Shown one piece after another: positions 19,994 through 55,783 of a stretch of DNA of 64,000 bases. Under the pieces are notes generated by a model, which was not told the origin of the DNA, did no database searches, and was given only the letters and a program-made list of their open reading frames with translations. Source of the stretch: Alcaligenaceae bacterium (lineage in GTDB: Bacteria; Pseudomonadota; Gammaproteobacteria; Burkholderiales; Burkholderiaceae_B); the NCBI GenBank assembly GCA_013416405.1, contig JACCET010000006.1, forward strand, positions 248,001-312,000. Reading direction: 5' to 3'. Made by a program: the position numbers and the translations under genes. Positions within the stretch are counted from its first letter, which is position 1. Every line of letters starts with the position of its first letter.

Positions 19994-20656
19994 CTAAGCC
20001 TTGCGCTGCGCGGGTTTGCGCTTGCCAGCCGCAGCGGATTTTCCATCGACTCTGGACCTATCGTCGTTCAGCTGTTCCATCCACGACAAGGCATCCATGT
20101 AAGACAGGAAATGCCGCAGATAGCCAGGCGACAGCGTTTGCATCAAAATCAGCGAGCGATGGGCCAGACCACTGGAGTTAAGCGGGCCGGCATTATCAGG
20201 TACCTGATCACCCGACTGCCTGAGCATGCGATTGGCACTGACGCTTGCCCAGGTATTGCGGAAATAATCGATTAGGGCGGGCTCAAGACTTAATTCACCT
20301 TGCCCCGCTTTGCTTTGTGAGGCACGATGGCCAGCATTGGACTGGGGAACCTGGCTGGCCGCATAATCCAGCAACTCAGCCAAAGGCCCGCCAGTCATCT
20401 GGGTCTCGCGTTGGATCCGGGTCTCATCCTGGCATTGGCCAGATAGGCGCGCCGGCTCAACAATCTCGTCTTGATAGGCTTGTAATTGCCTGGACAGGCG
20501 CTCTTGCAGCACACGCAAGGCATCGCCGTCTTGCCTGGCCATGCGTTTGGACAAGGCCTCAATAAAATAAAAACGTGATGGCGCCAGAGCATCCTCGCCG
20601 CGCTCACGCCAGTCGGCCAGTTGCTTGGCTGCGCAATCGAACGCTTCTTTATTCAT
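19994..20656 (-). CDS. DUF2894 domain protein (motor-cluster accessory)
   Basis: 220-residue predicted soluble protein, rich in Gln/Arg/Ala with a basic C-terminal tail (KSAAAGKRKPAQRKA). Start is ATG 20654-20656, inside the end of the OmpA-like gene (8-base overlap). Visible segments are a helical N-terminus (FDCAAKQLADWRERG), an Arg/Gln-rich middle and a conserved-looking LIDYFRNTWASVSANRMLRQ block near 142-161, followed by LSPGYLRHFLSYMDALSWM near 182-200. It matches DUF2894, known only as the last gene of this cluster. No enzymatic motif can be seen. Confidence 0.8.
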   Translation of the reverse strand: MNKEAFDCAAKQLADWRERGEDALAPSRFYFIEALSKRMARQDGDALRVLQERLSRQLQAYQDEIVEPARLSGQCQDETRIQRETQMTGGPLAELLDYAASQVPQSNAGHRASQSKAGQGELSLEPALIDYFRNTWASVSANRMLRQSGDQVPDNAGPLNSSGLAHRSLILMQTLSPGYLRHFLSYMDALSWMEQLNDDRSRVDGKSAAAGKRKPAQRKA

Positions 20657-21320
20657 AGTTCGGCTGCGCTGCCGGGGCGCCAGGCTGAGCCGCAACAGCC
20701 GACATGCTGGGCACGGGTGAAATTTCTACCCGCCGATTCCTGGCTCGCCCTTCTTCGTTGGCATTCGAGGCAACGGGCTGCTGTTCGCCAAATGCCGCAG
20801 CAAATACCGACGACGAGGGAATGCCCGCCTCGATCAAGGCACGCGTGACCATCAGTGCGCGCTGCGCCGACAGATCCCAGTTATCGTCAAACTTGCGGTT
20901 GCCCTCAAGCACTTGCTGATCATCGGTAAAACCGCTGATCATCAGGATTTGGTCATGTGACTGAAGGTAATCGGTCAGTGGCGCCACCAACGACTGCAAT
21001 ACTTGCCGGCCTTCATCTTGCAATTGCGCCGAGTTCAAGGCAAACAGCACGCTGCCACTAATGCCTATGCGTCCGTCGACCAGCGTCACACTGCCCTCGG
21101 CCAGCGGCCTGGCCAGCGCCTGCTCCAGGCTGATGCGTCGCTGTGTTTCTTCCTGGCGCTGCACCATCTCTTGCTCCAGCCTGGCCGACAGCTCCAGCTG
21201 CAGGCCTATGGCCCCCACCAGAACCAGGACAAAGGCGCCCAGCAGCACGGACATTAAATCGCCGAATACCGCCCATACCGGCGCCGTCGGTTCAATGCCG
21301 GTGTCCAGATCGTCGTTCAT
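20649..21320 (-). CDS. OmpA/MotB-like membrane protein (ZorB-like stator subunit)
   Basis: 223 residues: a short cytoplasmic N-terminus, a single membrane helix at about 15-40 that carries Asp21 in the pattern VFGDLMSVLLGAF (as the proton-carrying Asp of MotB/ExbD), a coiled segment to about 75, and a C-terminal OmpA/MotB peptidoglycan-binding domain (FALNSAQLQDEG, ISGFTDDQQV, LSAQRALMVTRALIEAG, RARNRRVEI). Its ATG overlaps the stop of the DUF802 gene (ATGA). Together with that MotA-like partner it should form a proton-driven stator unit in the inner membrane. Confidence 0.88.
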   Translation of the reverse strand: MNDDLDTGIEPTAPVWAVFGDLMSVLLGAFVLVLVGAIGLQLELSARLEQEMVQRQEETQRRISLEQALARPLAEGSVTLVDGRIGISGSVLFALNSAQLQDEGRQVLQSLVAPLTDYLQSHDQILMISGFTDDQQVLEGNRKFDDNWDLSAQRALMVTRALIEAGIPSSSVFAAAFGEQQPVASNANEEGRARNRRVEISPVPSMSAVAAQPGAPAAQPNYE

Positions 21321-23290
21321 GACGTTGCGGCATCAGACGACACGCGCTTGCCGGCCGCGTACTGAAGCTCTTCAATGATCTGCTTTTGCGACATCACACT
21401 CAGGTCTATGACTTCTTTGGCCTGCGCCACATAGTAGGCAAGCTGCTCATCGCTACGCGTCATGGACTTATCCAGCGCGGCCTCGATACGTTGCAGATGT
21501 TCGATCAATACCGCATTGGATGCGCCGAAGGTATGGACGGCGGAGCCAAACGCATCGCCCAGGCTGGCGACCTCGATGGCGCTGCCGGTGATCTGGCTGG
21601 CTGCATAGGCCAGCCTTTCCGTTTCAATCCGGGCCTGATCGGTAAACCGGGTACCTACGCGCTCAAGCACATCGGCCGACTTGACCAGCAAGGCATCGAT
21701 GGCCTCGCGCTGTTCTGTCGAAGCATGCCTCATGGCATCAAGCAAGCTGGCCGAGGTCTGCAGCAGACTGTTGCGCTCCTCCAGCATGGCGTTCTCACGG
21801 GCCATACTGTCGGAAAATGCCTGACGTACCTCGGCAACCAGGCCCGCCGCCGCTTTGGGTGCATCGCCTGAGATAGCAGCCAGCTTGGCCATTTCCGCAA
21901 TCGTGCCGTCAGCGTGTTGCTTGGTCTGCGTCGAGAGATCGTCTGCGGCCTGAACCAAGGCAGCGCAGATTTCCCGTTGCTGGTCCTTGGCATGCTCTCC
22001 TGCTTGCTGCCACTGCACACGCAAGACGGTGGCCGTTTCAGCCAGGCTGGCAGTCAGGGCCTTCAGGCGTTCTTCGTCCTGGGTGGCCAGATCGGCCCTC
22101 AGCGCCTGGTGCGACTGATCCACAGCATTTACCAAGTCGCTGGCCTGCTGCTCCAGAGCCGATACTGCCGCAGACAAGGCACGCTGGTTGTCAGCCGACA
22201 GCTGCTCGCTGCCTGCTTGCTGGGTGGAAAGCGCCTGTTTCCAGGCATCTGACAGGCTGCCCGCTGTTTCCTCCAAACGCGCCGACACGCCATCCAGCAG
22301 GGTGGCCGATCGCTGCTCGAACGTTGACGCCACACCCTCCAGCTGTCGCTGCGCAGCTTGCGTGATGCCGTCACGCAAGGCGGCCGTATCCCGCGCAAGG
22401 CCAGCCATCGTCGTTTCCACCAGTGGCTGGATAGCCGCTCCTGCGCTGCGCACGCCTTCCGTGATACTGCCCTTCAATGATTGCGCGACCGAGTCGGCAA
22501 GGCGCAGGTAAGCCGTCTCGGCATTTGCGTGAAATTGTTCTTGTCGGGTTTGCAACTGCTCATCCAAGCGCTCGCTCTGTTGTGCCATGGCCTTCATCAG
22601 CACCTGCAGTTGATCGGCTACGGCGCTCATGCCCTGCGTCTGCTGTTGCAACAGGCGATGGCCTTCTTCACGCTGGTATGCCGGCGAATGGGCACGCAAT
22701 ACGCCCGAAACCTTGGCATCCAGCACCTGCGACACATGGATGCGGTCACGGGTAATCAGGGCGGAGAGCAAACCCAGCATCGCCGAGGTCGCCACACCGG
22801 CAACCGAGGTGCCAAAAGCAAAACCCAGGCCCTGAACGGGTGCCGCCAGCGAGGCCCGGATCGCGGCCAGGTCGGTAGAGCTTTCCAGCGCCAGGCCAGT
22901 TCCCCGCAGCGTCGCTATCATGCCCAGAAATGTCCCCAGCATGCCCAGCAATACCAGCAACCCCACCAGGTAAGGCGTCAGGACCGGCCTGGGCAGGCCT
23001 GCGCGCGCGCCCTGAATCCGCTGTTCGACCGGAGTTTTAAGGCTGGCATGCACCGAACTTAGCCATTCGTTCAGATCAGCCGGCGGCTCAGACAAGGCTG
23101 CAAGCGCCCGTGCCAGACTGGTCGTGGCCTGCTGATAGCGAAACAGCTCCAGGGAACCAGCCAGGTAAACAACGACGATCAGCGCAATAACGGCCAAGGC
23201 CAGGGAACTGGAAGCCAGGTAGTGCGAGCCTATCCAGCCGGCAACGATAAGCCCGGCAAGGAATACAAGAAATTGAAGAAGTCGATTCAT
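21317..23290 (-). CDS. DUF802 protein: MotA/ExbB-like membrane domain with long coiled-coil tail
   Basis: 657 residues. Two helices near 5-22 and 28-48, then a MotA/TolQ/ExbB-like helix pair near 107-130 (VGLLVLLGMLGTFLGMIATL) and 152-177 (GLGFAFGTSVAGVATSAMLG). The remaining 470 residues are a continuous Ala/Gln/Glu-rich helical coiled coil with repeated segments (DUF802 repeats) and no enzymatic domain. This plan, an ion-channel domain plus a very long cytoplasmic tail, is that of ZorA of the Zorya anti-phage system. In this cluster it is paired with the OmpA/MotB-like protein. The function of DUF802 proteins is not established to my knowledge. Confidence 0.88.
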   Translation of the reverse strand: MNRLLQFLVFLAGLIVAGWIGSHYLASSSLALAVIALIVVVYLAGSLELFRYQQATTSLARALAALSEPPADLNEWLSSVHASLKTPVEQRIQGARAGLPRPVLTPYLVGLLVLLGMLGTFLGMIATLRGTGLALESSTDLAAIRASLAAPVQGLGFAFGTSVAGVATSAMLGLLSALITRDRIHVSQVLDAKVSGVLRAHSPAYQREEGHRLLQQQTQGMSAVADQLQVLMKAMAQQSERLDEQLQTRQEQFHANAETAYLRLADSVAQSLKGSITEGVRSAGAAIQPLVETTMAGLARDTAALRDGITQAAQRQLEGVASTFEQRSATLLDGVSARLEETAGSLSDAWKQALSTQQAGSEQLSADNQRALSAAVSALEQQASDLVNAVDQSHQALRADLATQDEERLKALTASLAETATVLRVQWQQAGEHAKDQQREICAALVQAADDLSTQTKQHADGTIAEMAKLAAISGDAPKAAAGLVAEVRQAFSDSMARENAMLEERNSLLQTSASLLDAMRHASTEQREAIDALLVKSADVLERVGTRFTDQARIETERLAYAASQITGSAIEVASLGDAFGSAVHTFGASNAVLIEHLQRIEAALDKSMTRSDEQLAYYVAQAKEVIDLSVMSQKQIIEELQYAAGKRVSSDAATS

Positions 23291-23308
23291 AGGGTAATAG
23301 GTTAGCGG

Positions 23309-24049
23309 CTAAGGCCGACGGGTCAGCGCCGCCTGCAATCCTTGAGCCGGTTGCAGGCGAATATCCAACTCCGCGAATAATACATTCTGCATATCCTCGT
23401 GAAATGCATTCAGCCAGGCATTTGCCTGGCCGGCCGATTCCAGGCGAGGTTCAACCTCATGGTCCAGCGCTGCCTGCTTCAAGCGCTTGAAGTGGCCCTC
23501 AAGCAAAACGGGGATACGGGCCAGCACGCAAAACTCGCGCTCATTCAGCGCCTGCTCCATGACAGCATCGACCGCAGCAAGGCGAGCCATAGCAGAAGAT
23601 CGGCTCGCCAGCATCTTACGCAAACGAGCTCGTAGATCAGTGCAACGCGTCTCCATGGTTTGTTGCAACGCAATATAACGCTGGCGATACGTTGAAAACT
23701 CGATGGTGGCTGCCGACACGGTACCGCCGGGTCGGGCCGCCGGAGGCTGCCTGGTGCGATGCCTGGCCGGCGCCGGAGCGTTGACAGCGACAATCAAATC
23801 ACTCAGGGCTTTGTGAACACGGTCGTATTCCTGCGTTCCGTTGAGCGATGAGGCCGTATGGGAAACGACTGGCGCGGCGCCGCCCAATGCCCCTGCCAGT
23901 GCAATCGCGTCAGACCAGCCTAACCAGTGACTCAAGCGATCCGGAGGTGATTGCGACGGCCCCCGGACATCGGTATCGTTCAGGCGCGCCAGCAAGCGAA
24001 CGAGCGCGGGCCCGCTGAAACTTGTACGTCGTGCCATTTCTTTCGCCAT
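23309..24049 (-). CDS. DUF3348 family protein (first gene of the motor cluster)
   Basis: 246-residue predicted cytoplasmic protein with no membrane helix. The start is ATG 24047-24049 (a second ATG at 24037 is possible). The N-terminus FSGPALVRLLARLNDTDV and LSHWLGWSDAIALAGAL are recognisable for DUF3348, followed by a Pro/Arg linker and a helical C-terminus (YRQRYIALQQTMETRCTDLR, then a second helical block with FKRLKQAA). It lies 18 bases before the DUF802 gene. The family occurs with DUF802, OmpA-like and DUF2894 genes in Burkholderiales. No function can be given. Confidence 0.82.
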   Translation of the reverse strand: MAKEMARRTSFSGPALVRLLARLNDTDVRGPSQSPPDRLSHWLGWSDAIALAGALGGAAPVVSHTASSLNGTQEYDRVHKALSDLIVAVNAPAPARHRTRQPPAARPGGTVSAATIEFSTYRQRYIALQQTMETRCTDLRARLRKMLASRSSAMARLAAVDAVMEQALNEREFCVLARIPVLLEGHFKRLKQAALDHEVEPRLESAGQANAWLNAFHEDMQNVLFAELDIRLQPAQGLQAALTRRP

Positions 24050-24173: not shown

Positions 24174-24521
24174 TTAATCATCGTCATCGTCGAGGTGGAA
24201 CTTGTGAATGATACGATGGGCAAGCGGGGCCAGCACGAGACCCAGCGTGGCAACGAAAACCAGACCCACCAGAATGCTGTACAAGGAAAAAAAGATTTTT
24301 CCCATTACGCTCGCTGGTACGATATACGGCCCAATACCCACAAGAATCAGCGCAGTGTTCAAAATGGCATCGTGCCACTCGACAGGTTCAAGCAACAGGT
24401 GCCCCAACACGCCGATGGCCAGGGTGAATGCCACGACCAGCAAGGCCAGGCCCACATGCGAAAAAATTCGATACGTAAAATCGCGCGGATGCAATAAAGA
24501 TTCGTTTTTCGACTCGTACAT
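24174..24521 (-). CDS. Small membrane protein resembling a two-helix K+ channel without the selectivity filter
   Basis: 115 residues from ATG 24519-24521, chosen because GGAAGGGG lies 8 bases upstream. There are three hydrophobic segments (about 19-40, 49-66, 73-97). The block DAILNTALILVGIGPYIVPASVMGKIF aligns by pattern with the pore region of two-helix K+ channels, but the TVGYGD filter is replaced by LVGIGPY. The C-terminus ends in a run of Asp. It may be a degenerate ion-channel-fold protein with another role. It lies 124 bases before the DUF3348 gene on the same strand; cotranscription is possible but not shown. Confidence 0.65.
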   Translation of the reverse strand: MYESKNESLLHPRDFTYRIFSHVGLALLVVAFTLAIGVLGHLLLEPVEWHDAILNTALILVGIGPYIVPASVMGKIFFSLYSILVGLVFVATLGLVLAPLAHRIIHKFHLDDDDD

Positions 24522-24978
24522 TGCCCACCCCTTCCGGTTGCATGAACAAACAGCCATTACGCCAGTGACCGCATCCTAGCCCAGTTCAGGCAGAATTGGT
24601 ACTAATACGGAATTATTGGTCAGGGTCAGGACATCCCAATAAAGTAAACCGGTTTCATAACCGAAACGAAATCAGGCACGCGAGCGTCTTGAACGAGCAA
24701 AAATCGCACAAAAAGTACTACGTGATAACCCTGCTCAAGCAGTGTTCAAAACCATTTGAAATCCAAACGAAATACGCCGCAACAATTATAAAGACCCGCA
24801 TGGAATATGGGCTGCGGCCCGCCAAAGCGCTTTATTTATTAAGTTCAAAGCCTCTTTTTCATGGGTTTATGGCTTGTTGACGTGAGTTTTTGTATAGCCT
24901 ATAAAAGCACCGGCAGTTAGAAGTTTGCATTCTGTTGCAAGCCACAAAAACTTCATCGCATAAAGCCAGGAGACACAA
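24522..24978. other. Divergent regulatory region before the TRAP operon
   Basis: 457 bases without a supported gene. It includes the TRAP promoter (24877-24905) and a small inverted repeat CGGTT-TCAT-AACCG (24650-24663). A 94-codon open frame in this region has no ribosome-binding site or family resemblance and was rejected. Confidence 0.45.
24877..24905 (+). promoter_or_regulatory. Sigma-70 promoter of the TRAP operon
   Basis: TTGACG (24877-24882), exactly 17 bases, TATAAA (24900-24905). Transcription would start near 24912, giving a leader of about 67 bases; the GGAG ribosome-binding site (AGGAGACACAAATG) follows. This is the closest match to consensus in the window. Confidence 0.7.
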
Positions 24979-35453: not shown

Positions 35454-36339
35454 GGCCGGCCTCTTTGCTTTGCGTGCCCACCCTGAGCATCCAGTTATAC
35501 AAAATGAAGCAGAACACAAGAATAATCAGGAAATAGATCAGTGAAAAAGCCGCCGCTGGGCCCAGGTCGAACTGTCCGACCGCCTTTTGCGTCAGGTACT
35601 GACTTAAGAAGGTGGTGGCATCGCCCGGCCCGCCCCCCGTCAGTACAAAGGGTTCGGTATAAATCATGAAACTGTCCATGAAACGCAAGAGCACCGCAAT
35701 CATCAGCACCCCGCGCATCTTGGGCAGCTGTATATAACGGAACACGGCAAACTTGCTGGCGCCGTCGATGCTGGCGGCCTGGTAGTAAGCTTCTGGAATC
35801 GAGCGCAGACCGGCATAGGCCAGCAGCGCCACCAGCGGCGTCCAGTGCCATACATCCATCAGCAGCACCGTCAGCCAGGCCTGGGTAGGATTGCTGGCAT
35901 AGCTGTAGTCTATGCCCAGCATGGTCAGGGCGCGCCCCATCAGCCCAATATCGGTACGCCCAAAAATCTGCCATATCGTTCCCACGACATTCCAGGGAAT
36001 CAACAATGACAAAGCTACCAACACCAGCACCGCCGAGGCCTTCCAGCCCGAGGCCGGCATGGACAGGGCCAGCAGGATACCCAGCGGAATTTCTATGGCC
36101 AACACCGACAGCGAAAAAATCAATTGGCGCAACAGGGCGGCATGCAGCTCATCATCGCGCATGACCATGGCAAACCACTCAGTTCCCACAAACACAGACC
36201 GCGTAGGGGAAAAAACATCTTGCACCGAGTAATTCACCACCGTCATGAGGGGAATAACGGCAGAGAAGGCGACGCACAGGCACACCGGCAATATCAGCCA
36301 CCATGCCTTTTGATTGACGGGTTTGGAGTCTTGAGTCAT
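35446..36339 (-). CDS. glpP: Glycerol ABC transporter permease (GlpP-like)
   Basis: MalF-type inner-membrane permease, 297 residues with six predicted helices; the EAA-loop pattern AYYQAASIDGASKFAVFRYI lies near 192-211. It follows glpT with an ATGA overlap and precedes glpQ, so the heterodimeric channel is made from one mRNA. The first helix begins LILPVCLCVAFSAVIPLM near 15-32. Confidence 0.92.
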   Translation of the reverse strand: MTQDSKPVNQKAWWLILPVCLCVAFSAVIPLMTVVNYSVQDVFSPTRSVFVGTEWFAMVMRDDELHAALLRQLIFSLSVLAIEIPLGILLALSMPASGWKASAVLVLVALSLLIPWNVVGTIWQIFGRTDIGLMGRALTMLGIDYSYASNPTQAWLTVLLMDVWHWTPLVALLAYAGLRSIPEAYYQAASIDGASKFAVFRYIQLPKMRGVLMIAVLLRFMDSFMIYTEPFVLTGGGPGDATTFLSQYLTQKAVGQFDLGPAAAFSLIYFLIILVFCFILYNWMLRVGTQSKEAGHE

Positions 36340-37412
36340 GCGATGAGCTCCTCGTTCCTGTAAAAGCAGGACTGCGGCCCAAGCAGTGCCAGCCCAACAA
36401 TAGATCCGATTTCGGGCAGGCTGTGTTCCATACCCAGACGGGCGCGCACCAATTGCGTGCCCAGCCTTGCGGTCAGCAACTGGTGAGTACCGACGTCCTG
36501 TATGTTTTCAACGGTAGCGCTCACGACGCCAGGCTCGCCCACTTGTGCTAGGCGTGTGTATTCCGGCCTTATGCCCAACTTCAATTCACCTTGTGCCAAC
36601 GACATGCCGACGGGAATGGAAATGGGCGTTCCAGCAAGTGTGGCCACATCGTTGCCAACGCTTAGCGACAGCAGATTCATGCCTGGCGATCCTATGAAGT
36701 GCCCCACGAACGTATGCGCCGGACGCTCGAACAATTCTTGCGGCGTGCCCATTTGCACCACTTGGCCGCGTGACATCACCATAATCTGTTCGGCAAAGGT
36801 CAGCGCCTCGATCTGATCGTGCGTGACATAGATCAGTGTGAGTTTCAGCTCTTGGTGAATCTGTTTGAGTTTGCGTCGTAGCTGCCACTTAAGGTGCGGG
36901 TCTATGACGGTCAGTGGTTCATCGAACAACACCGCCGAAACGTCGTCGCGCACCAGGCCGCGCCCCAGTGAAATTTTTTGCTTGGCGTCGGCCGACAGGC
37001 CTGCGGCGCGCTGATCAAGCTGATGACTCATTTCAAGCATTTCAGCGATCTTCCCTACCCGCTCTTTAATGCGGGCCTCGGGTATTTTGCGATTGCGCAA
37101 AGGAAAACCCAGGTTCTGTCCCACCGTCATGGTGTCGTACACAACAGGAAACTGGAACACCTGAGCGATATTGCGCGCCTGTGGCGATGCCTGTGTCTGG
37201 TCAACACCATCGAAGTGAACAGTGCCTTGCGACGGCGTAAGCAAGCCCGAAATAATATTGAGCATCGTCGTTTTGCCGCAGCCAGAAGGGCCCAGCAAGG
37301 CATAGGCACCGCCATCTTGAAACGACATTTTCAAAGGCAGCAAGGCGTAGTCTTCGTCGCTTTTCGGATGTGCCACGTAGGAGTGCGAGAGATCGAGGTC
37401 GATACGTGCCAT
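36336..37412 (-). CDS. glpT: Glycerol ABC transporter ATP-binding protein (GlpT-like)
   Basis: One of two ATPases of the importer. The 358 residues contain Walker A LLGPSGCGKTTMLNII near 38-53, the degenerate signature LSADAKQKISLGRGLVRDD near 139-157 (canonical LSGGQ replaced by LSADA), Walker B AVLFDEPLTVIDP near 160-172, and the switch His in VTHDQIEA near 197-204. The C-terminal part (about 240-358) is an MalK-like regulatory OB domain (TOBE). The degenerate signature suggests that the second ATPase partner supplies the hydrolytically competent site. Confidence 0.92.
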   Translation of the reverse strand: MARIDLDLSHSYVAHPKSDEDYALLPLKMSFQDGGAYALLGPSGCGKTTMLNIISGLLTPSQGTVHFDGVDQTQASPQARNIAQVFQFPVVYDTMTVGQNLGFPLRNRKIPEARIKERVGKIAEMLEMSHQLDQRAAGLSADAKQKISLGRGLVRDDVSAVLFDEPLTVIDPHLKWQLRRKLKQIHQELKLTLIYVTHDQIEALTFAEQIMVMSRGQVVQMGTPQELFERPAHTFVGHFIGSPGMNLLSLSVGNDVATLAGTPISIPVGMSLAQGELKLGIRPEYTRLAQVGEPGVVSATVENIQDVGTHQLLTARLGTQLVRARLGMEHSLPEIGSIVGLALLGPQSCFYRNEELIA

Positions 37413-50079: not shown

Positions 50080-51741
50080 ATGGACCAACTGATCCTTGCA
50101 GACCTGATAACTGATCTGCCCAACGGCATCCGCCTGCAACGCGCCGTACAGACGTTGCGCGAGCATTTTGAATGCGATGCGGTCGGCCTGCTCAGTCTGG
50201 ACGACGACAGTCTGCGCCTGGTTGCCGCGGCCGGCTTGGCGCACGAAGCGCTGGGCCGCCGTTTCGTCGTGGCACAGCACCCTCGTTTTGCCACCATACT
50301 TTCACGACGTGAACCCACCTGGTTCGATCCAGGCAGCATGCTGGCCGACCCCTACGACGGCTTGCTCGACGATAAAAAAGGGCTGCCGCTGCCCGTGCAC
50401 GACTGCCTGGGCATGAGCCTGTACACCGAAGGACGGCCCTGGGGCATCGTCACGCTCGACGCCCTGGAAATTGGCGCCTTCGACAGCGCCGCACTGGACG
50501 AGCTGCAACGCTATGCCCTCATGCTCGAAGCTGCCGTGCGTGTCACCGCGCTTGAAAAGGAGAACCGCAGCCTGAAGCTATTGGGCAGTTCCAACAGCGG
50601 TACGCTGCAAATCATGGATGAAAGCGAAATCGTAGGCGCCAGTGATGCCATCACGCAGCTGCTGCACGAGCTCGATGTCGTGGCTGACTCAGATCTGCCC
50701 GTGCTCTTGACCGGGGAAACCGGCGTGGGCAAAGAGCTCTTTGCCCGCAGGCTGCATCGACGATCCCGGCGCAGCCAGCAGCCCATGGTTCATGTCAACT
50801 GTGCGGCCCTGCCCGAATCCCTGGCCGAAAGTGAGCTGTTCGGACACGTCAAGGGTGCATTTTCCGGCGCGAGCAGTGAACGCGCAGGCCGCTTTGAAGC
50901 CGCCCAAGGCGGCACGCTGTTTCTGGATGAGGTCGGCGAGCTGCCGCTTTCGGTTCAGGCCAAACTGCTGCGAGCCCTGCAAAACGGGGAAATCCAGCGA
51001 CTGGGCACCGATCAGGTCATCAAGACTGACGTTCGCATTATTGCCGCCACCAACCGACAGCTAAAAAAAAGCACCTCAGCCGGGAATTTCCGCGCCGACT
51101 TATATCACCGCCTATCGGTGTACCCGGTTCATATTCCGCCCTTGCGCGAGCGTGGGCAAGATGTATTGATATTGGCCGGCCATTTCATGGAGCTTAGCAG
51201 GGCGCGTCTGGGCTTGCGCGGACTACGTCTGTCGTATGCGGCCGAGCGCGCACTGCTGCACTACAACTGGCCCGGCAATGTGCGCGAACTGGAACACGTT
51301 ATCAGTCGCGCCGCCCTGAAAACACTAAGCCGAGGCACCTCGCGCGACCAGATCCTGACGCTAGATCCGGATGTATTGGATGTGGAAACACCCCATGTAT
51401 CGCTTGCCGAAGCGCTACATCAAGACGACGACGCCCTAGACAGCTACGCGGGGGGCCTTGGCGCCAAGGCGCCAAGGCCCGAAGCACACCTTTACGCCGC
51501 CGAACCCTTTTATGGCCCCGGTCCCGATCACAGCACCGTTGCCACCCCAGACACCACCAGTGCCCAGCCCGCCGTCGCGCAAAAAATCATTCCGTTGCGC
51601 ATAGCGATGGAAAACTGCCAGCGCCAGGCCGTTCAAAACGCCCTGATCCAAACACACGATAACTGGGCACAAGCCGCCAGATTGCTGCAGCTGGACAGCA
51701 GCAATCTGCACAAGCTTGCCAAAAAGCTGGGGCTGAAATAA
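50080..51741 (+). CDS. norR: Nitric-oxide-responsive sigma-54 activator NorR
   Basis: Regulator that binds NO through a mononuclear iron in its N-terminal GAF domain and then activates sigma-54 transcription. The 553 residues have GAF (about 15-165), AAA+ domain (about 190-420) with Walker [15 protein letters not shown] near 212-225 and Walker [13 protein letters not shown], and a Fis-type helix-turn-helix at the C-terminus (about 510-553: [20 protein letters not shown]). The sigma-54 contact loop reads GAFSGA (residues 259-264) where GAFTGA is canonical. About 70 residues of a Pro/Ala-rich linker precede the helix-turn-helix. It is divergent from dnrN-norZ. Confidence 0.94.
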
Positions 51742-53697: not shown

Positions 53698-53791
53698 GCG
53701 GAAACGCAGACCGGCACGCAAGGGAACGTTTCCGATGAAATATGGTCTGCAAGATTACCGAAAAATAAAACGACGAACAAGAAAGCAGAAA

Positions 53792-55783
53792 ATGAATTGG
53801 ACAGACGCATTAGTTGAAAGCGGCATATGGATCATGCAGGCCTACGCCATTACCTTGGTACTGGCCTCTGCCACCATAGGAATACTGGCCAGGCGCACCG
53901 TCTGGGGCAGGCAGTTCTGGGCATTGGCATCTGGCTACTTTTCACCACGGCGCAGCTGGAAGCCGCTGGTTACGCTGGCACTGATACTGCTGCTTACCCT
54001 GGCCGGCGTAAGGCTGGAAGTCCTGTTTTCGAACTGGTACAACACCATGTACACCGCACTGCAAAAGCTGGACGAGTCCGGCTTTTGGGGCGCCATGGTG
54101 CTGTTTGCCGTTCTGGCCACCATACACGTGGTGCGCTCCTTGCTCGATTTCTATGTACAAAATGCGTTCACAATACGCTGGCGTGTATGGCTGAATGAAC
54201 AATTGCTGGGCAGTTGGCTGGACAAGCAAGCGTATTACCGCAGCCAATATCTGGACACCCCCGTCGATAACCCCGATCAACGTATACAGCAAGACGTCAC
54301 GGTATTCGCCGAGATGTCGCTGTCGCTGTGCATGGGCGTGATCAATGCATTGGTATCTACTTTTGCCTTCACGCTGATCTTGTGGAATTTGTCGGGGCCG
54401 ATATCGCTTTTTGGCCTGGAGGTTCCACGCGGCATGGTCTTCCTGGTGTTTGTCTACGTTATCGTGGCCACCGTCTTTGCCATCAAGATCGGGCGCCCCC
54501 TGATTTTGCTGAACTTTCTTAACGAACGCTTTAACGCCGACTATCGTTATGCACTGGTTCGCTTACGCGAGTATGCCGAAAGCATAGCCTTTTATGCCGG
54601 CGAAAAAGTCGAAGGCACCATACTGCGTGGCCGCTTTGCCAATGTCATCAACAACGCCTGGGCCATTGTGTATCGATCCCTGAAGTTCCTGGGATTCAAC
54701 TTTTCGGTCAGCCAGGCCGCCGTGGTTTTTCCCTTCATCATCCAGGCCCAGCGCTTTTTTTCCAAGCAAATCAGCCTGGGCGATTTGATGCAAACCGCGC
54801 AGGCCTTTGGCCGATTGCAAGACAACCTGTCGTTCTTTCGAAATGCCTACGACAACTTCGCCACTTACCGCGCCACGCTCGATCGTTTAAGCGGTTTCAC
54901 CAAGGCGATTGCCGATGCCCGCGCGCTGCCCGAACCCGACGTCCAGGCACAGGGGCCACGCATAGCCCTGCAATCGCTTACGGTGCGCACACCTTCGGGC
55001 ACCCTGTTGCTCAAGGATTTAAGTGTGGAAGTCTTGCCCGACGCGCCCTTGTTGATACGCGGGCCTTCGGGCTCGGGTAAAACCACCCTACTACGAGCCG
55101 TCGCCGGATTGTGGCCCTATTGTGATGGCCACATCATCCGACCCGAGCACGAAGCCCTGTTTTTATCGCAAAAGCCTTATCTGCCATTGGGCAGTCTGCG
55201 TTCAGCCTTGTATTACCCCCATGCACTGCCCGAAGGCACAGGTCAGCAACCCACCACAGACGTTCGGCATCAGGAACAGGCCGCCCTGGCCAGCGCACAT
55301 CGCGTGCCCAGCAATCTTGATGGCCTAATCAATAGCCACAAAAACCAGGTCTCCAGGCCCCACGCTGCCCAAGACGCCCAGGCAAGCAACGAACAGAGTG
55401 GCCCAGACGGCAGCGCATCGGCGACGCTGGATCAGCGCGCCATCGATGTCCTGCGTGCGGTGCAACTTGGACACCTGGCTGACAAACTGGACATGACAGC
55501 CGACTGGGGCCGTATCTTGTCACTGGGAGAGCAGCAACGTTTGGCCTTTGGCCGTGTATTGCTGGCCGAGCCCGATGCCATATTCCTGGATGAAGCCACC
55601 TCGGCCATGGACGAAGGTCTGGAAGATGCCATGTATCGGCTGGTTCGCGAACGCTTGCCCGCCACCATACTGCTCAGCGTTGGGCATCGCAGCACACTGT
55701 TTGCGCATCATCCCCGCCAACTCGTGTTGAAGGGCGACGGAACCGGCGCCTGGGAAATCACCGATACAGACCTGCTACGATAG
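53792..55783 (+). CDS. SbmA/BacA/YddA-type ABC transporter, fused permease and ATPase
   Basis: 663 residues from the ATG at 53792 (MNWTDALVESG), chosen because the upstream ATG at 53735 gives a basic extension; either is possible. The permease part (about 15-370) has six helices in the ABC_membrane_2 pattern with RIQQDVTVFAEMSLSLCMG. The ATPase has Walker A RGPSGSGKTTLLRAVAG near 430-446, an insertion of about 65 residues near 486-555, signature LSLGEQQRLAFGRVLL near 571-586 and Walker B DAIFLDEATSAMD. Related proteins take up or export peptides, or act on vitamin B12-type substrates. Confidence 0.88.
   Translation: MNWTDALVESGIWIMQAYAITLVLASATIGILARRTVWGRQFWALASGYFSPRRSWKPLVTLALILLLTLAGVRLEVLFSNWYNTMYTALQKLDESGFWGAMVLFAVLATIHVVRSLLDFYVQNAFTIRWRVWLNEQLLGSWLDKQAYYRSQYLDTPVDNPDQRIQQDVTVFAEMSLSLCMGVINALVSTFAFTLILWNLSGPISLFGLEVPRGMVFLVFVYVIVATVFAIKIGRPLILLNFLNERFNADYRYALVRLREYAESIAFYAGEKVEGTILRGRFANVINNAWAIVYRSLKFLGFNFSVSQAAVVFPFIIQAQRFFSKQISLGDLMQTAQAFGRLQDNLSFFRNAYDNFATYRATLDRLSGFTKAIADARALPEPDVQAQGPRIALQSLTVRTPSGTLLLKDLSVEVLPDAPLLIRGPSGSGKTTLLRAVAGLWPYCDGHIIRPEHEALFLSQKPYLPLGSLRSALYYPHALPEGTGQQPTTDVRHQEQAALASAHRVPSNLDGLINSHKNQVSRPHAAQDAQASNEQSGPDGSASATLDQRAIDVLRAVQLGHLADKLDMTADWGRILSLGEQQRLAFGRVLLAEPDAIFLDEATSAMDEGLEDAMYRLVRERLPATILLSVGHRSTLFAHHPRQLVLKGDGTGAWEITDTDLLR

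What the first reader, a model, noticed from the sequence alone, without database searches (positions are those of the whole stretch)
19994..24049. Motor-like four-gene cluster resembling the ZorAB core, with DUF3348 and DUF2894 as unknown partners
Seen: a MotA/ExbB-type channel domain with a 470-residue coiled-coil tail (21317-23290), an OmpA/MotB-like protein with a membrane Asp (20649-21320), and two soluble proteins in one overlapping operon. Known: ZorA/ZorB of Zorya defence share exactly this plan, a proton-driven stator with a long cytoplasmic tail, while the ZorC/D effectors differ. Inference: this is a stator-driven machine whose cytoplasmic tail signals to DUF3348 and/or DUF2894. No function is described for this cluster to my knowledge. 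The alternative is a cell-envelope or polysaccharide-related motor, since it is core in Burkholderiales and defence genes usually are not.
Basis: partly seen in the sequence, partly recalled or inferred. Interest (0 to 1): 0.65.

Follow-up and report, generated by a model that had tools for sequence, protein, structure and literature searches.

The report
Type III Zorya anti-phage motor operon
The four genes are a type III Zorya system, an already named bacterial anti-virus machine built on an ion-driven membrane motor; the unusual part is that in this bacterial family it is kept like a core gene instead of being gained and lost like most defence genes.

Summary
All four proteins hit the PADLOC-DB models for Zorya type III (ZorA3 1.6e-298, ZorB3 2.8e-111, DUF3348 2.1e-80, DUF2894 2.7e-63). 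That type was named in 2021, and one copy reduced phage plaquing in E. coli (PMC8565338, passages). The motor parts check out: membrane Asp and peptidoglycan motifs in 58 of 58 ZorB, and profile matches to solved ZorAB-type chains. The two partners model as all-helical without a significant PDB fold match.

Three further results. (1) It is not core across the order (20 of 300 genomes) but nearly all-or-none by genus in the window's family: differentiation 0.895, against 0.088 for HSDR_N hits (0.080 with strong hits only). (2) Of 72 flanking proteins scanned, 1 matched PADLOC-DB, a homing endonuclease. (3) The ZorA tail varies about 2.5-fold in length, largely through tandem blocks, often of 87 residues, between conserved ends. 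Whether it defends its natural host is unproven. Known kind; modest interest.

The parts
23309..24049 (-). DUF3348 protein, 246 aa (ZorF in the PADLOC paper's text, ZorG in PADLOC-DB)
   Evidence: Pfam PF11828 5e-71; PADLOC-DB PDLC00658 2.1e-80; all-helical model, pLDDT 82.6, no PDB fold match at E<=0.001
21317..23290 (-). ZorA type III, 657 aa: four-helix channel head (about 1-205), long coiled-coil tail, conserved tip (about 595-643)
   Evidence: PADLOC-DB ZorA3 1.6e-298; head against ZorA1 1e-8 and ZorA2 4e-6; head profile against PDB 8vvn_C 1.1e-5; helix count read from the sequence
21320..22675 (-). Cytoplasmic tail of ZorA (residues about 206-657) with two DUF802 stretches; the hydrophobic period near 11/3 is a family average
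   Evidence: Pfam DUF802; mean power spectrum of 135 ZorA tails peaks at period 3.66; no long block repeat in this copy
20649..21320 (-). ZorB type III, 223 aa: one membrane helix with D21, OmpA-type peptidoglycan-binding domain
   Evidence: PADLOC-DB ZorB3 2.8e-111; OmpA 1.6e-18; profile against PDB 8vvn_B 1.4e-9 and 8qyd_F 1.1e-7; motifs in 58 of 58 ZorB, this one included
19994..20656 (-). DUF2894 protein, 220 aa (ZorG in the paper's text, ZorF in PADLOC-DB), with a basic C-terminal end
   Evidence: Pfam PF11445 1.4e-51; PADLOC-DB PDLC00652 2.7e-63; all-helical model, pLDDT 75, pTM 0.40; net charge of last 25 aa positive in 80 of 80 relatives, median +5.5

Best explanation
It is a complete Zorya type III system and most likely works as an envelope-anchored, ion-driven rotary anti-phage machine. 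Shown by sequence: ZorA3 and ZorB3 are homologues of the ZorA5B2 stator, with the membrane Asp, the conserved Thr/Ser positions in the channel helices and an OmpA-type peptidoglycan-binding domain. Inferred from types I and II: envelope disturbance during phage entry lets ZorB grip peptidoglycan, ions flow past D21, and the ZorA pentamer turns with its coiled-coil shaft. Inferred here: the conserved tip of the shaft docks DUF3348 and/or DUF2894, and the basic end of DUF2894 touches nucleic acid or the acidic shaft, so the output is mechanical or regulatory rather than a nuclease. In this family the system is kept like a core gene, so it probably acts as a standing, lineage-specific defence.
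For: PADLOC-DB matches for all four proteins. The head matches ZorA1 and ZorA2 models and PDB chain 8vvn_C, 696 aa, a length that agrees with the Shewanella ZorA rod numbering 237-696 in PMC11890865 (passages). ZorB matches 8vvn_B and 8qyd_F over membrane helix plus OmpA domain. D21 and peptidoglycan motifs in 58 of 58 ZorB, both channel motifs in 57 of 58 ZorA. In types I and II the equivalent Asp, peptidoglycan binding and the ZorA tail are needed for defence (PMC11890865, abstract and passages). A type III system lowered plaquing in E. coli (PMC8565338, passages). Head and tip of ZorA are both conserved (mean commonest-residue frequency 0.80 and 0.78 over 125 sequences) around a middle of 264-886 aa.
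Against: No phage test of this locus. In B. cenocepacia K56-2 CRISPRi knock-down of the predicted defence systems, which include a Zorya III, did not change fitness against phage Bcep176, although the first one or two genes of Zorya I and Zorya III changed in transcription (PMC12584637, passages). Inheritance and neighbours are unlike typical defence genes. No enzymatic effector was recognised. No type III complex was predicted here, so the 5:2 assembly rests on homology. The tip motif as I wrote it matched 47 of 58 ZorA.
Confidence: 0.6

Rival explanations
1. A lineage-specific housekeeping stator of the envelope (peptidoglycan-linked sensing, division or chromosome positioning), whose anti-phage effect in E. 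coli is a side effect of overexpression.
For: Nearly all-or-none by genus: differentiation 0.895 against 0.088 for HSDR_N in the same 229 genomes (0.080 with the 60 genomes whose HSDR_N hit is below 1e-20). Partial agreement with the rpoB tree: Mantel rho 0.59 over 58 genomes, 0.47 over the 46 in the family, above all 999 shuffles; 8 of 11 multi-genome genera one clade. Of 72 flanking proteins 1 matched PADLOC-DB. No effector fold recognised. No fitness effect of predicted defence systems in the K56-2 CRISPRi screen (PMC12584637, passages).
Against: None found in 16 of the 27 genera with two or more genomes, so it is dispensable for many relatives. Plaquing reduction by a cloned type III system (PMC8565338, passages). 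Core defence systems exist (PMC13064858, section 7 part 1). Zorya proteins diverge much faster than RpoB, and some transfers are likely.
Confidence: 0.22
2. An abortive-infection ion channel: ZorA3B3 opens on infection and depolarises the membrane, with DUF3348 and DUF2894 as regulators (close to the view of the PADLOC authors).
For: [quoted passage not shown] No enzyme fold recognised in the partners.
Against: The long tail with a conserved tip and the need for the tail in types I and II (PMC11890865, abstract) suggest an output through the shaft; a channel alone does not need it. The same abstract names the ZorE nickase as the effector in type II.
Confidence: 0.15
3. An ordinary MotAB, ExbBD or TolQR-type complex unrelated to Zorya.
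For: The ZorB OmpA domain resembles MotB and PomB.
Against: Best matches are the ZorA3 and ZorB3 models by far; Pfam MotA_ExbB reaches only E 0.063 at best, in 12 of 23 heads; fixed association with DUF3348 and DUF2894; a long coiled-coil tail.
Confidence: 0.02

Closest known systems
Zorya type III (PADLOC; ZorA3, ZorB3, ZorF, ZorG)
   Same: All four genes; matches to every component model. In the loci read, gene order DUF3348-zorA-zorB-DUF2894
   Different: Nothing at family level. This copy is near the short end of tail lengths (head-to-tip 458 residues; 407-1029 in 125 proteins) and lacks the long block repeats of longer tails
Zorya types I and II (ZorABCD, ZorABE)
   Same: Stator core ZorA5B2 with cytoplasmic rod, membrane Asp, peptidoglycan-binding ZorB (by homology)
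   Different: No ZorC, ZorD or ZorE match among the four proteins; partners are helical proteins without a recognised fold instead of helicase/nuclease parts. Inherited in genus blocks, whereas the ZorA type I model gave 5 genomes with hits above 60 bits of 229, each in a different genus, and none over its cut-off
MotAB/PomAB, ExbBD, TolQR stators
   Same: Channel helices with the conserved Thr, B subunit with one membrane helix and Asp; MotB-like OmpA domain
   Different: Tail of about 450 aa in this copy; no flagellar, TonB or TolA partner among the ten neighbours given to Pfam

Membership tests
Zorya type III | zorA and zorB of the type III kind | tested here: met
   PADLOC-DB ZorA3 1.6e-298, ZorB3 2.8e-111
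Zorya type III | Flanking DUF3348 and DUF2894 genes | tested here: met
   also in 58 of 61 and 75 of 80 loci, the rest cut by contig ends
Zorya type III | Ion-coupling Asp in the ZorB membrane helix | tested here: met
   D21; W..F.D in 58 of 58 ZorB of the window and of loci found through DUF3348, so not selected for the Asp
Zorya type III | Peptidoglycan-binding OmpA-type domain in ZorB | tested here: met
   Pfam OmpA 1.6e-18; (D/N)N.(E/D)LS..RA and NRR(V/I)E in 58 of 58
Zorya type III | ZorA5B2 assembly with a bundled cytoplasmic rod | not testable with these tools
   No complex prediction on hand; homology to solved chains only
Zorya type III | Anti-phage activity of this locus | not testable with these tools
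   Activity in print for the Stenotrophomonas nitritireducens copy in E. coli (PMC8565338, passages)
Defence systems in general (typical, not defining) | Accessory, patchy presence among close relatives | tested here: not met
   Within-genus heterozygosity 0.026 against 0.245 in shuffles; HSDR_N control 0.229 against 0.251, strong hits only 0.179 against 0.195
Defence systems in general (typical, not defining) | Defence-island neighbourhood | tested here: not met
   1 of 72 flanking proteins from 36 loci matched PADLOC-DB at 1e-10, a homing endonuclease model; 72 of the 142 picked flanking frames were scanned and no background set was scanned
Zorya type I or II | ZorC and ZorD, or ZorE, beside zorAB | tested here: not met
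   The four proteins match none of these; the ten neighbours given to Pfam are transporter parts, enzymes, a YceI-like protein and a small protein without a match; they were not given to PADLOC-DB
Flagellar MotAB | MotA family channel protein | tested here: not met
   The window's ZorA head has no Pfam MotA_ExbB match at E<=1; 12 of 23 heads match weakly, best E 0.063

The most novel reading that the evidence does not exclude
Type III Zorya is a lineage-core machine rather than an accessory defence module: a peptidoglycan-anchored, ion-driven motor kept largely by descent in several Burkholderiales genera, whose cytoplasmic shaft is lengthened and shortened by tandem duplication of sequence blocks between a fixed motor head and a fixed tip. 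Its output would be mechanical, through DUF3348 and the basic-ended DUF2894, and its main role would be constitutive immunity or a cell function not yet recognised.
Probability: 0.3. Interest if true: 0.6.

Novelty: already known. Interest (0 to 1): 0.3.

Why it matters
It corrects an apparent discovery: the cluster has had a name and a heterologous phage phenotype since 2021. What remains open is worth stating. Two of its four proteins show no recognisable fold or enzyme activity, no structure of a type III complex turned up in these searches, and its inheritance in this family contradicts the statement in PMC11890865 that the Zorya subtypes are distributed in the way typical of anti-phage systems (passage), at least for type III here. 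Tail lengths that differ about 2.5-fold with both ends conserved form a natural series for asking what the Zorya shaft does: if length is a reach or a torque arm, protection should change with block number.

Tried and rejected
Tail length in steps of 11 (whole hendecads): rejected. Over 50 distinct head-to-tip distances the modulo-11 signal is absent (R 0.13, p about 0.41); the counts over 103 unique sequences looked significant, probably because related sequences repeat. The hydrophobic period of 3.66 is a separate result.

The 87-residue step: 498 (17), 585 (10), 672 (8), 759 (7), 846 (4) and 933 (2) recur among 119 unique sequences, and 87 is the best identity offset (mean 0.164, median over offsets 0.096, sd 0.011). 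Against it: other frequent distances, 898 (9), 458 (4) and 663 (4), do not lie on this ladder, and as a modulus 87 is not among the best ten, over unique or over distinct lengths; 29 (one third of 87) ranks first (R 0.47 and 0.25). Other lineages use other blocks: in single examples 62/124, 102, 153, and over 81 tails 87 (31), 131 (13), 55 (7) and more. I claim block duplication, not a universal 87-residue ruler. These counts are not corrected for relatedness.

Fold of the partners: Foldseek against PDB gave 0 hits at E<=0.001 for DUF3348 and for DUF2894; profile searches gave only weak matches. DUF2894 has pTM 0.40, so its model is weak. The viral fold library was not searched. The full-length ZorA profile found no solved ZorA; the head-only profile did.

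The HSDR_N control counts every genome with a hit at E<=0.001, short and partial hits included; with only the 60 genomes below 1e-20 the differentiation is 0.080.

First rpoB tree was wrong because the longest ORF was antisense in some genomes; replaced by tblastn-based frames (shortest kept 934 residues). One search's neighbour drawing contains spurious antisense ORFs and was used only for the shared flanks within g1 and the lack of consistent flanks between genera.

Flank scan: one search picked up to two frames on each side in 36 loci (142 in all) by length and codon-position GC, so genes can be missed. I chose 72 of them by hand for A6: usually the nearest on each side, in about a dozen places the second one, and in L093 two from the same side. 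They are flanking, not strictly nearest, proteins.

Rows dropped: one search left out 3 of 61 loci lacking zorA or zorB on the contig; one search used 135 of 138 ZorA; one search measured 125 of 138, 119 unique; searches used 125 each; A2 and A3 used 49 of 73 and 49 of 80 listed relatives plus the window protein; A5 used 22 of 73 heads plus the window's.

Literature: searches, of which several lists were longer than what was shown. The papers in which I saw type III named are PMC8565338, PMC11890865, PMC12584637 and PMC13064858. PMC12645576 was opened for a possible deletion; the passages only list Zorya in Cupriavidus necator H16 without type or test. PMC12505986 (passages) treats ZorAB as a remote stator homologue.
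Full report
What is there. Four minus-strand genes lie end to end: DUF3348 (23309-24049), a 657-residue ZorA-like protein (21317-23290), a 223-residue ZorB-like protein (20649-21320) and DUF2894 (19994-20656). The last three overlap by 4 and 8 bases. Pfam names DUF3348, DUF802 (in the tail), OmpA and DUF2894.

What it is. PADLOC-DB gives all four proteins as Zorya type III: ZorA3 1.6e-298, ZorB3 2.8e-111, DUF3348 2.1e-80, DUF2894 2.7e-63. The type was proposed in the PADLOC paper (PMC8565338, passages read), which counts 6,401 gene pairs flanked by DUF3348 and DUF2894 and reports that a Stenotrophomonas nitritireducens copy cloned in E. coli BL21-AI was one of three systems that each reduced plaquing of at least one phage. 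The statement that no function is described is therefore wrong. The paper's text calls DUF3348 ZorF and DUF2894 ZorG, while PADLOC-DB labels them the other way round, and the text writes zorBC where zorAB seems meant.

The motor. A profile of 23 ZorA heads matches PDB chain 8vvn_C at 1.1e-5 over profile positions 106-180, the two channel helices; the window's head alone reaches ZorA1 models at 1e-8 and ZorA2 models at 4e-6. The ZorB profile matches 8vvn_B at 1.4e-9 and 8qyd_F at 1.1e-7 across membrane helix and OmpA domain. That these entries are ZorAB structures is recalled and fits the 696-residue Shewanella ZorA of PMC11890865 (passage). In the window and the loci found through DUF3348, 58 of 58 ZorB carry W..F.D and both peptidoglycan motifs, and 57 of 58 ZorA carry both channel motifs. 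PMC11890865 (abstract and passages) reports that ion flow, peptidoglycan binding and the ZorA tail matter for defence in types I and II and that the ZorB Asp D24 is crucial. By homology the same scheme is the likeliest here.

The tail. Over 135 ZorA sequences the mean hydrophobic power spectrum peaks at a period of 3.66, close to 11/3, the mark of a hendecad coiled coil. Between a fixed motif in channel helix 4 and a fixed tip motif the distance runs from 407 to 1029 residues in 125 proteins; the window's copy has 458. The head and the last stretch are both well conserved (mean commonest-residue frequency 0.80 and 0.78) while the middle runs from 264 to 886 residues. Of 125 tails, 81 contain a strong internal repeat, most often at 87 residues (31), and repeat strength rises with length (Spearman 0.81; not corrected for relatedness). 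Lengths are not simple multiples of 11, not all common lengths fit the 87-residue ladder, and the window's own tail shows no long repeat. A fixed head, a fixed tip and a shaft whose length changes by block duplication suggest that the tip docks something; this is inference.

The partners. DUF3348 models as all-helical (pLDDT 82.6, pTM 0.77) and DUF2894 likewise (75.0, pTM 0.40). Neither finds a PDB fold at E<=0.001. So the helicase and nuclease parts of types I and II have no visible counterpart. The last 25 residues of DUF2894 are net positive in 80 of 80 relatives (median +5.5), while the window's ZorA beyond residue 205 carries a net charge of -22. Binding of DUF2894 to DNA or to the shaft is a guess from charge alone.

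Inheritance. In the order, 20 of 300 genomes have DUF3348 over the cut-off, and in the phylum 23 of 397, all in the window's class, with one weaker hit outside it, so it is not core in Burkholderiales. In the window's family it is in 96 of 229 genomes. By genus, with labels, it is in 41 of 41, 9 of 9, 6 of 6, 5 of 5, 4 of 4, 2 of 2 and 2 of 2 in seven genera, 10 of 13, 10 of 11, 2 of 3 and 1 of 5 in four, and in none of 16, of the 27 genera with two or more genomes. Within-genus heterozygosity is 0.026 against a shuffled mean of 0.245, a differentiation of 0.895. The restriction gene family HSDR_N, at similar frequency (112 of 229), gives 0.088, and 0.080 when only hits below 1e-20 count (60 of 229). 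A genus of another family has DUF3348 in 50 of 57 genomes. The ZorA type I model found no genome over its cut-off; five genomes had hits above 60 bits, each in a different genus.

Descent. A tree of ZorA head, ZorB and DUF3348 agrees in part with rpoB: Mantel rho 0.59 over 58 genomes (largest of 999 shuffles 0.46) and 0.47 over the 46 in the family (0.29); between genera only, rho is 0.36. Of 11 genera with two or more sampled genomes, 8 form one clade, and of the other 3, two are not one clade with rpoB either. Sequences of another family (f30) sit inside the window family's part of the tree, so some transfer is likely. In a rough ORF comparison flanks are shared by all four genomes of the window's genus, but no consistent flank is shared between genera. 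Among 72 flanking proteins in 36 loci, 1 matched PADLOC-DB, a homing endonuclease model; the first 25 of 83 Pfam families found there are mostly transporters, regulators and metabolic enzymes. Around the window's copy lie a glycine betaine-type ABC transporter, a TRAP transporter and a UDP-sugar dehydrogenase.

What this means. By parts it is Zorya type III; by inheritance in this family it behaves like a genus-core gene. The idea of core defence systems is in print, with type III Zorya of Ralstonia solanacearum as an example (PMC13064858, section 7 part 1), so that part is extended here, not discovered. In B. cenocepacia K56-2 only the first one or two genes of the Zorya I and III operons changed in transcription on infection, and knock-down of the predicted defence systems had no effect against one phage (PMC12584637, passages); that is weak evidence against defence, since that phage infects productively. 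I put 0.6 on a motor-driven anti-phage role as the main function, 0.22 on a housekeeping role and 0.15 on a pure ion-leak mechanism.

Verdict. Observation confirmed; interpretation partly supported; a known kind of system. Interest 0.3, mainly for the inheritance pattern and the block-built shaft.

Noticed in passing
ZorA of other genomes, e.g. L041 (1133 aa): Tails with strong internal tandem repeats: identity 0.46 at offset 87 in L041; other lineages repeat at 62/124, 102 or 153 residues.
   Followed up: partly
Zorya tree, loci L086-L090 (family f30): Zorya proteins of another family of the order sit inside the window family's part of the tree, unlike in rpoB, which suggests transfer between families.
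   Followed up: no
Genomes G371, G372, G374 (genus g144), G457 (g164) and G475 (g166): Genomes without a DUF3348 match in genera where most sampled members have it; probable losses.
   Followed up: no
G473 and G474, loci L081 and L082: DUF3348 there is matched as three separate stretches in a 386-404 residue frame, as if it carried insertions.
   Followed up: no
window 24174-24557, minus strand: Small 127-residue probable membrane protein just upstream of the operon with no Pfam match at E<=1e-5.
   Followed up: no
PADLOC paper text against PADLOC-DB: ZorF and ZorG are swapped between the paper's text (ZorF = DUF3348) and the database labels (ZorG = DUF3348).
   Followed up: yes
window 50080-51741, 36336-37412 and 53735-55783: PADLOC-DB matches to RtcR-type regulators and to mad3/mad8; not examined further.
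   Followed up: no
Locus L174 (Pusillimonas sp. MFBS29) and G478: The two contigs have the same length (76,960 bases), so the window's genus g1 probably includes Pusillimonas sp. MFBS29.
   Followed up: no
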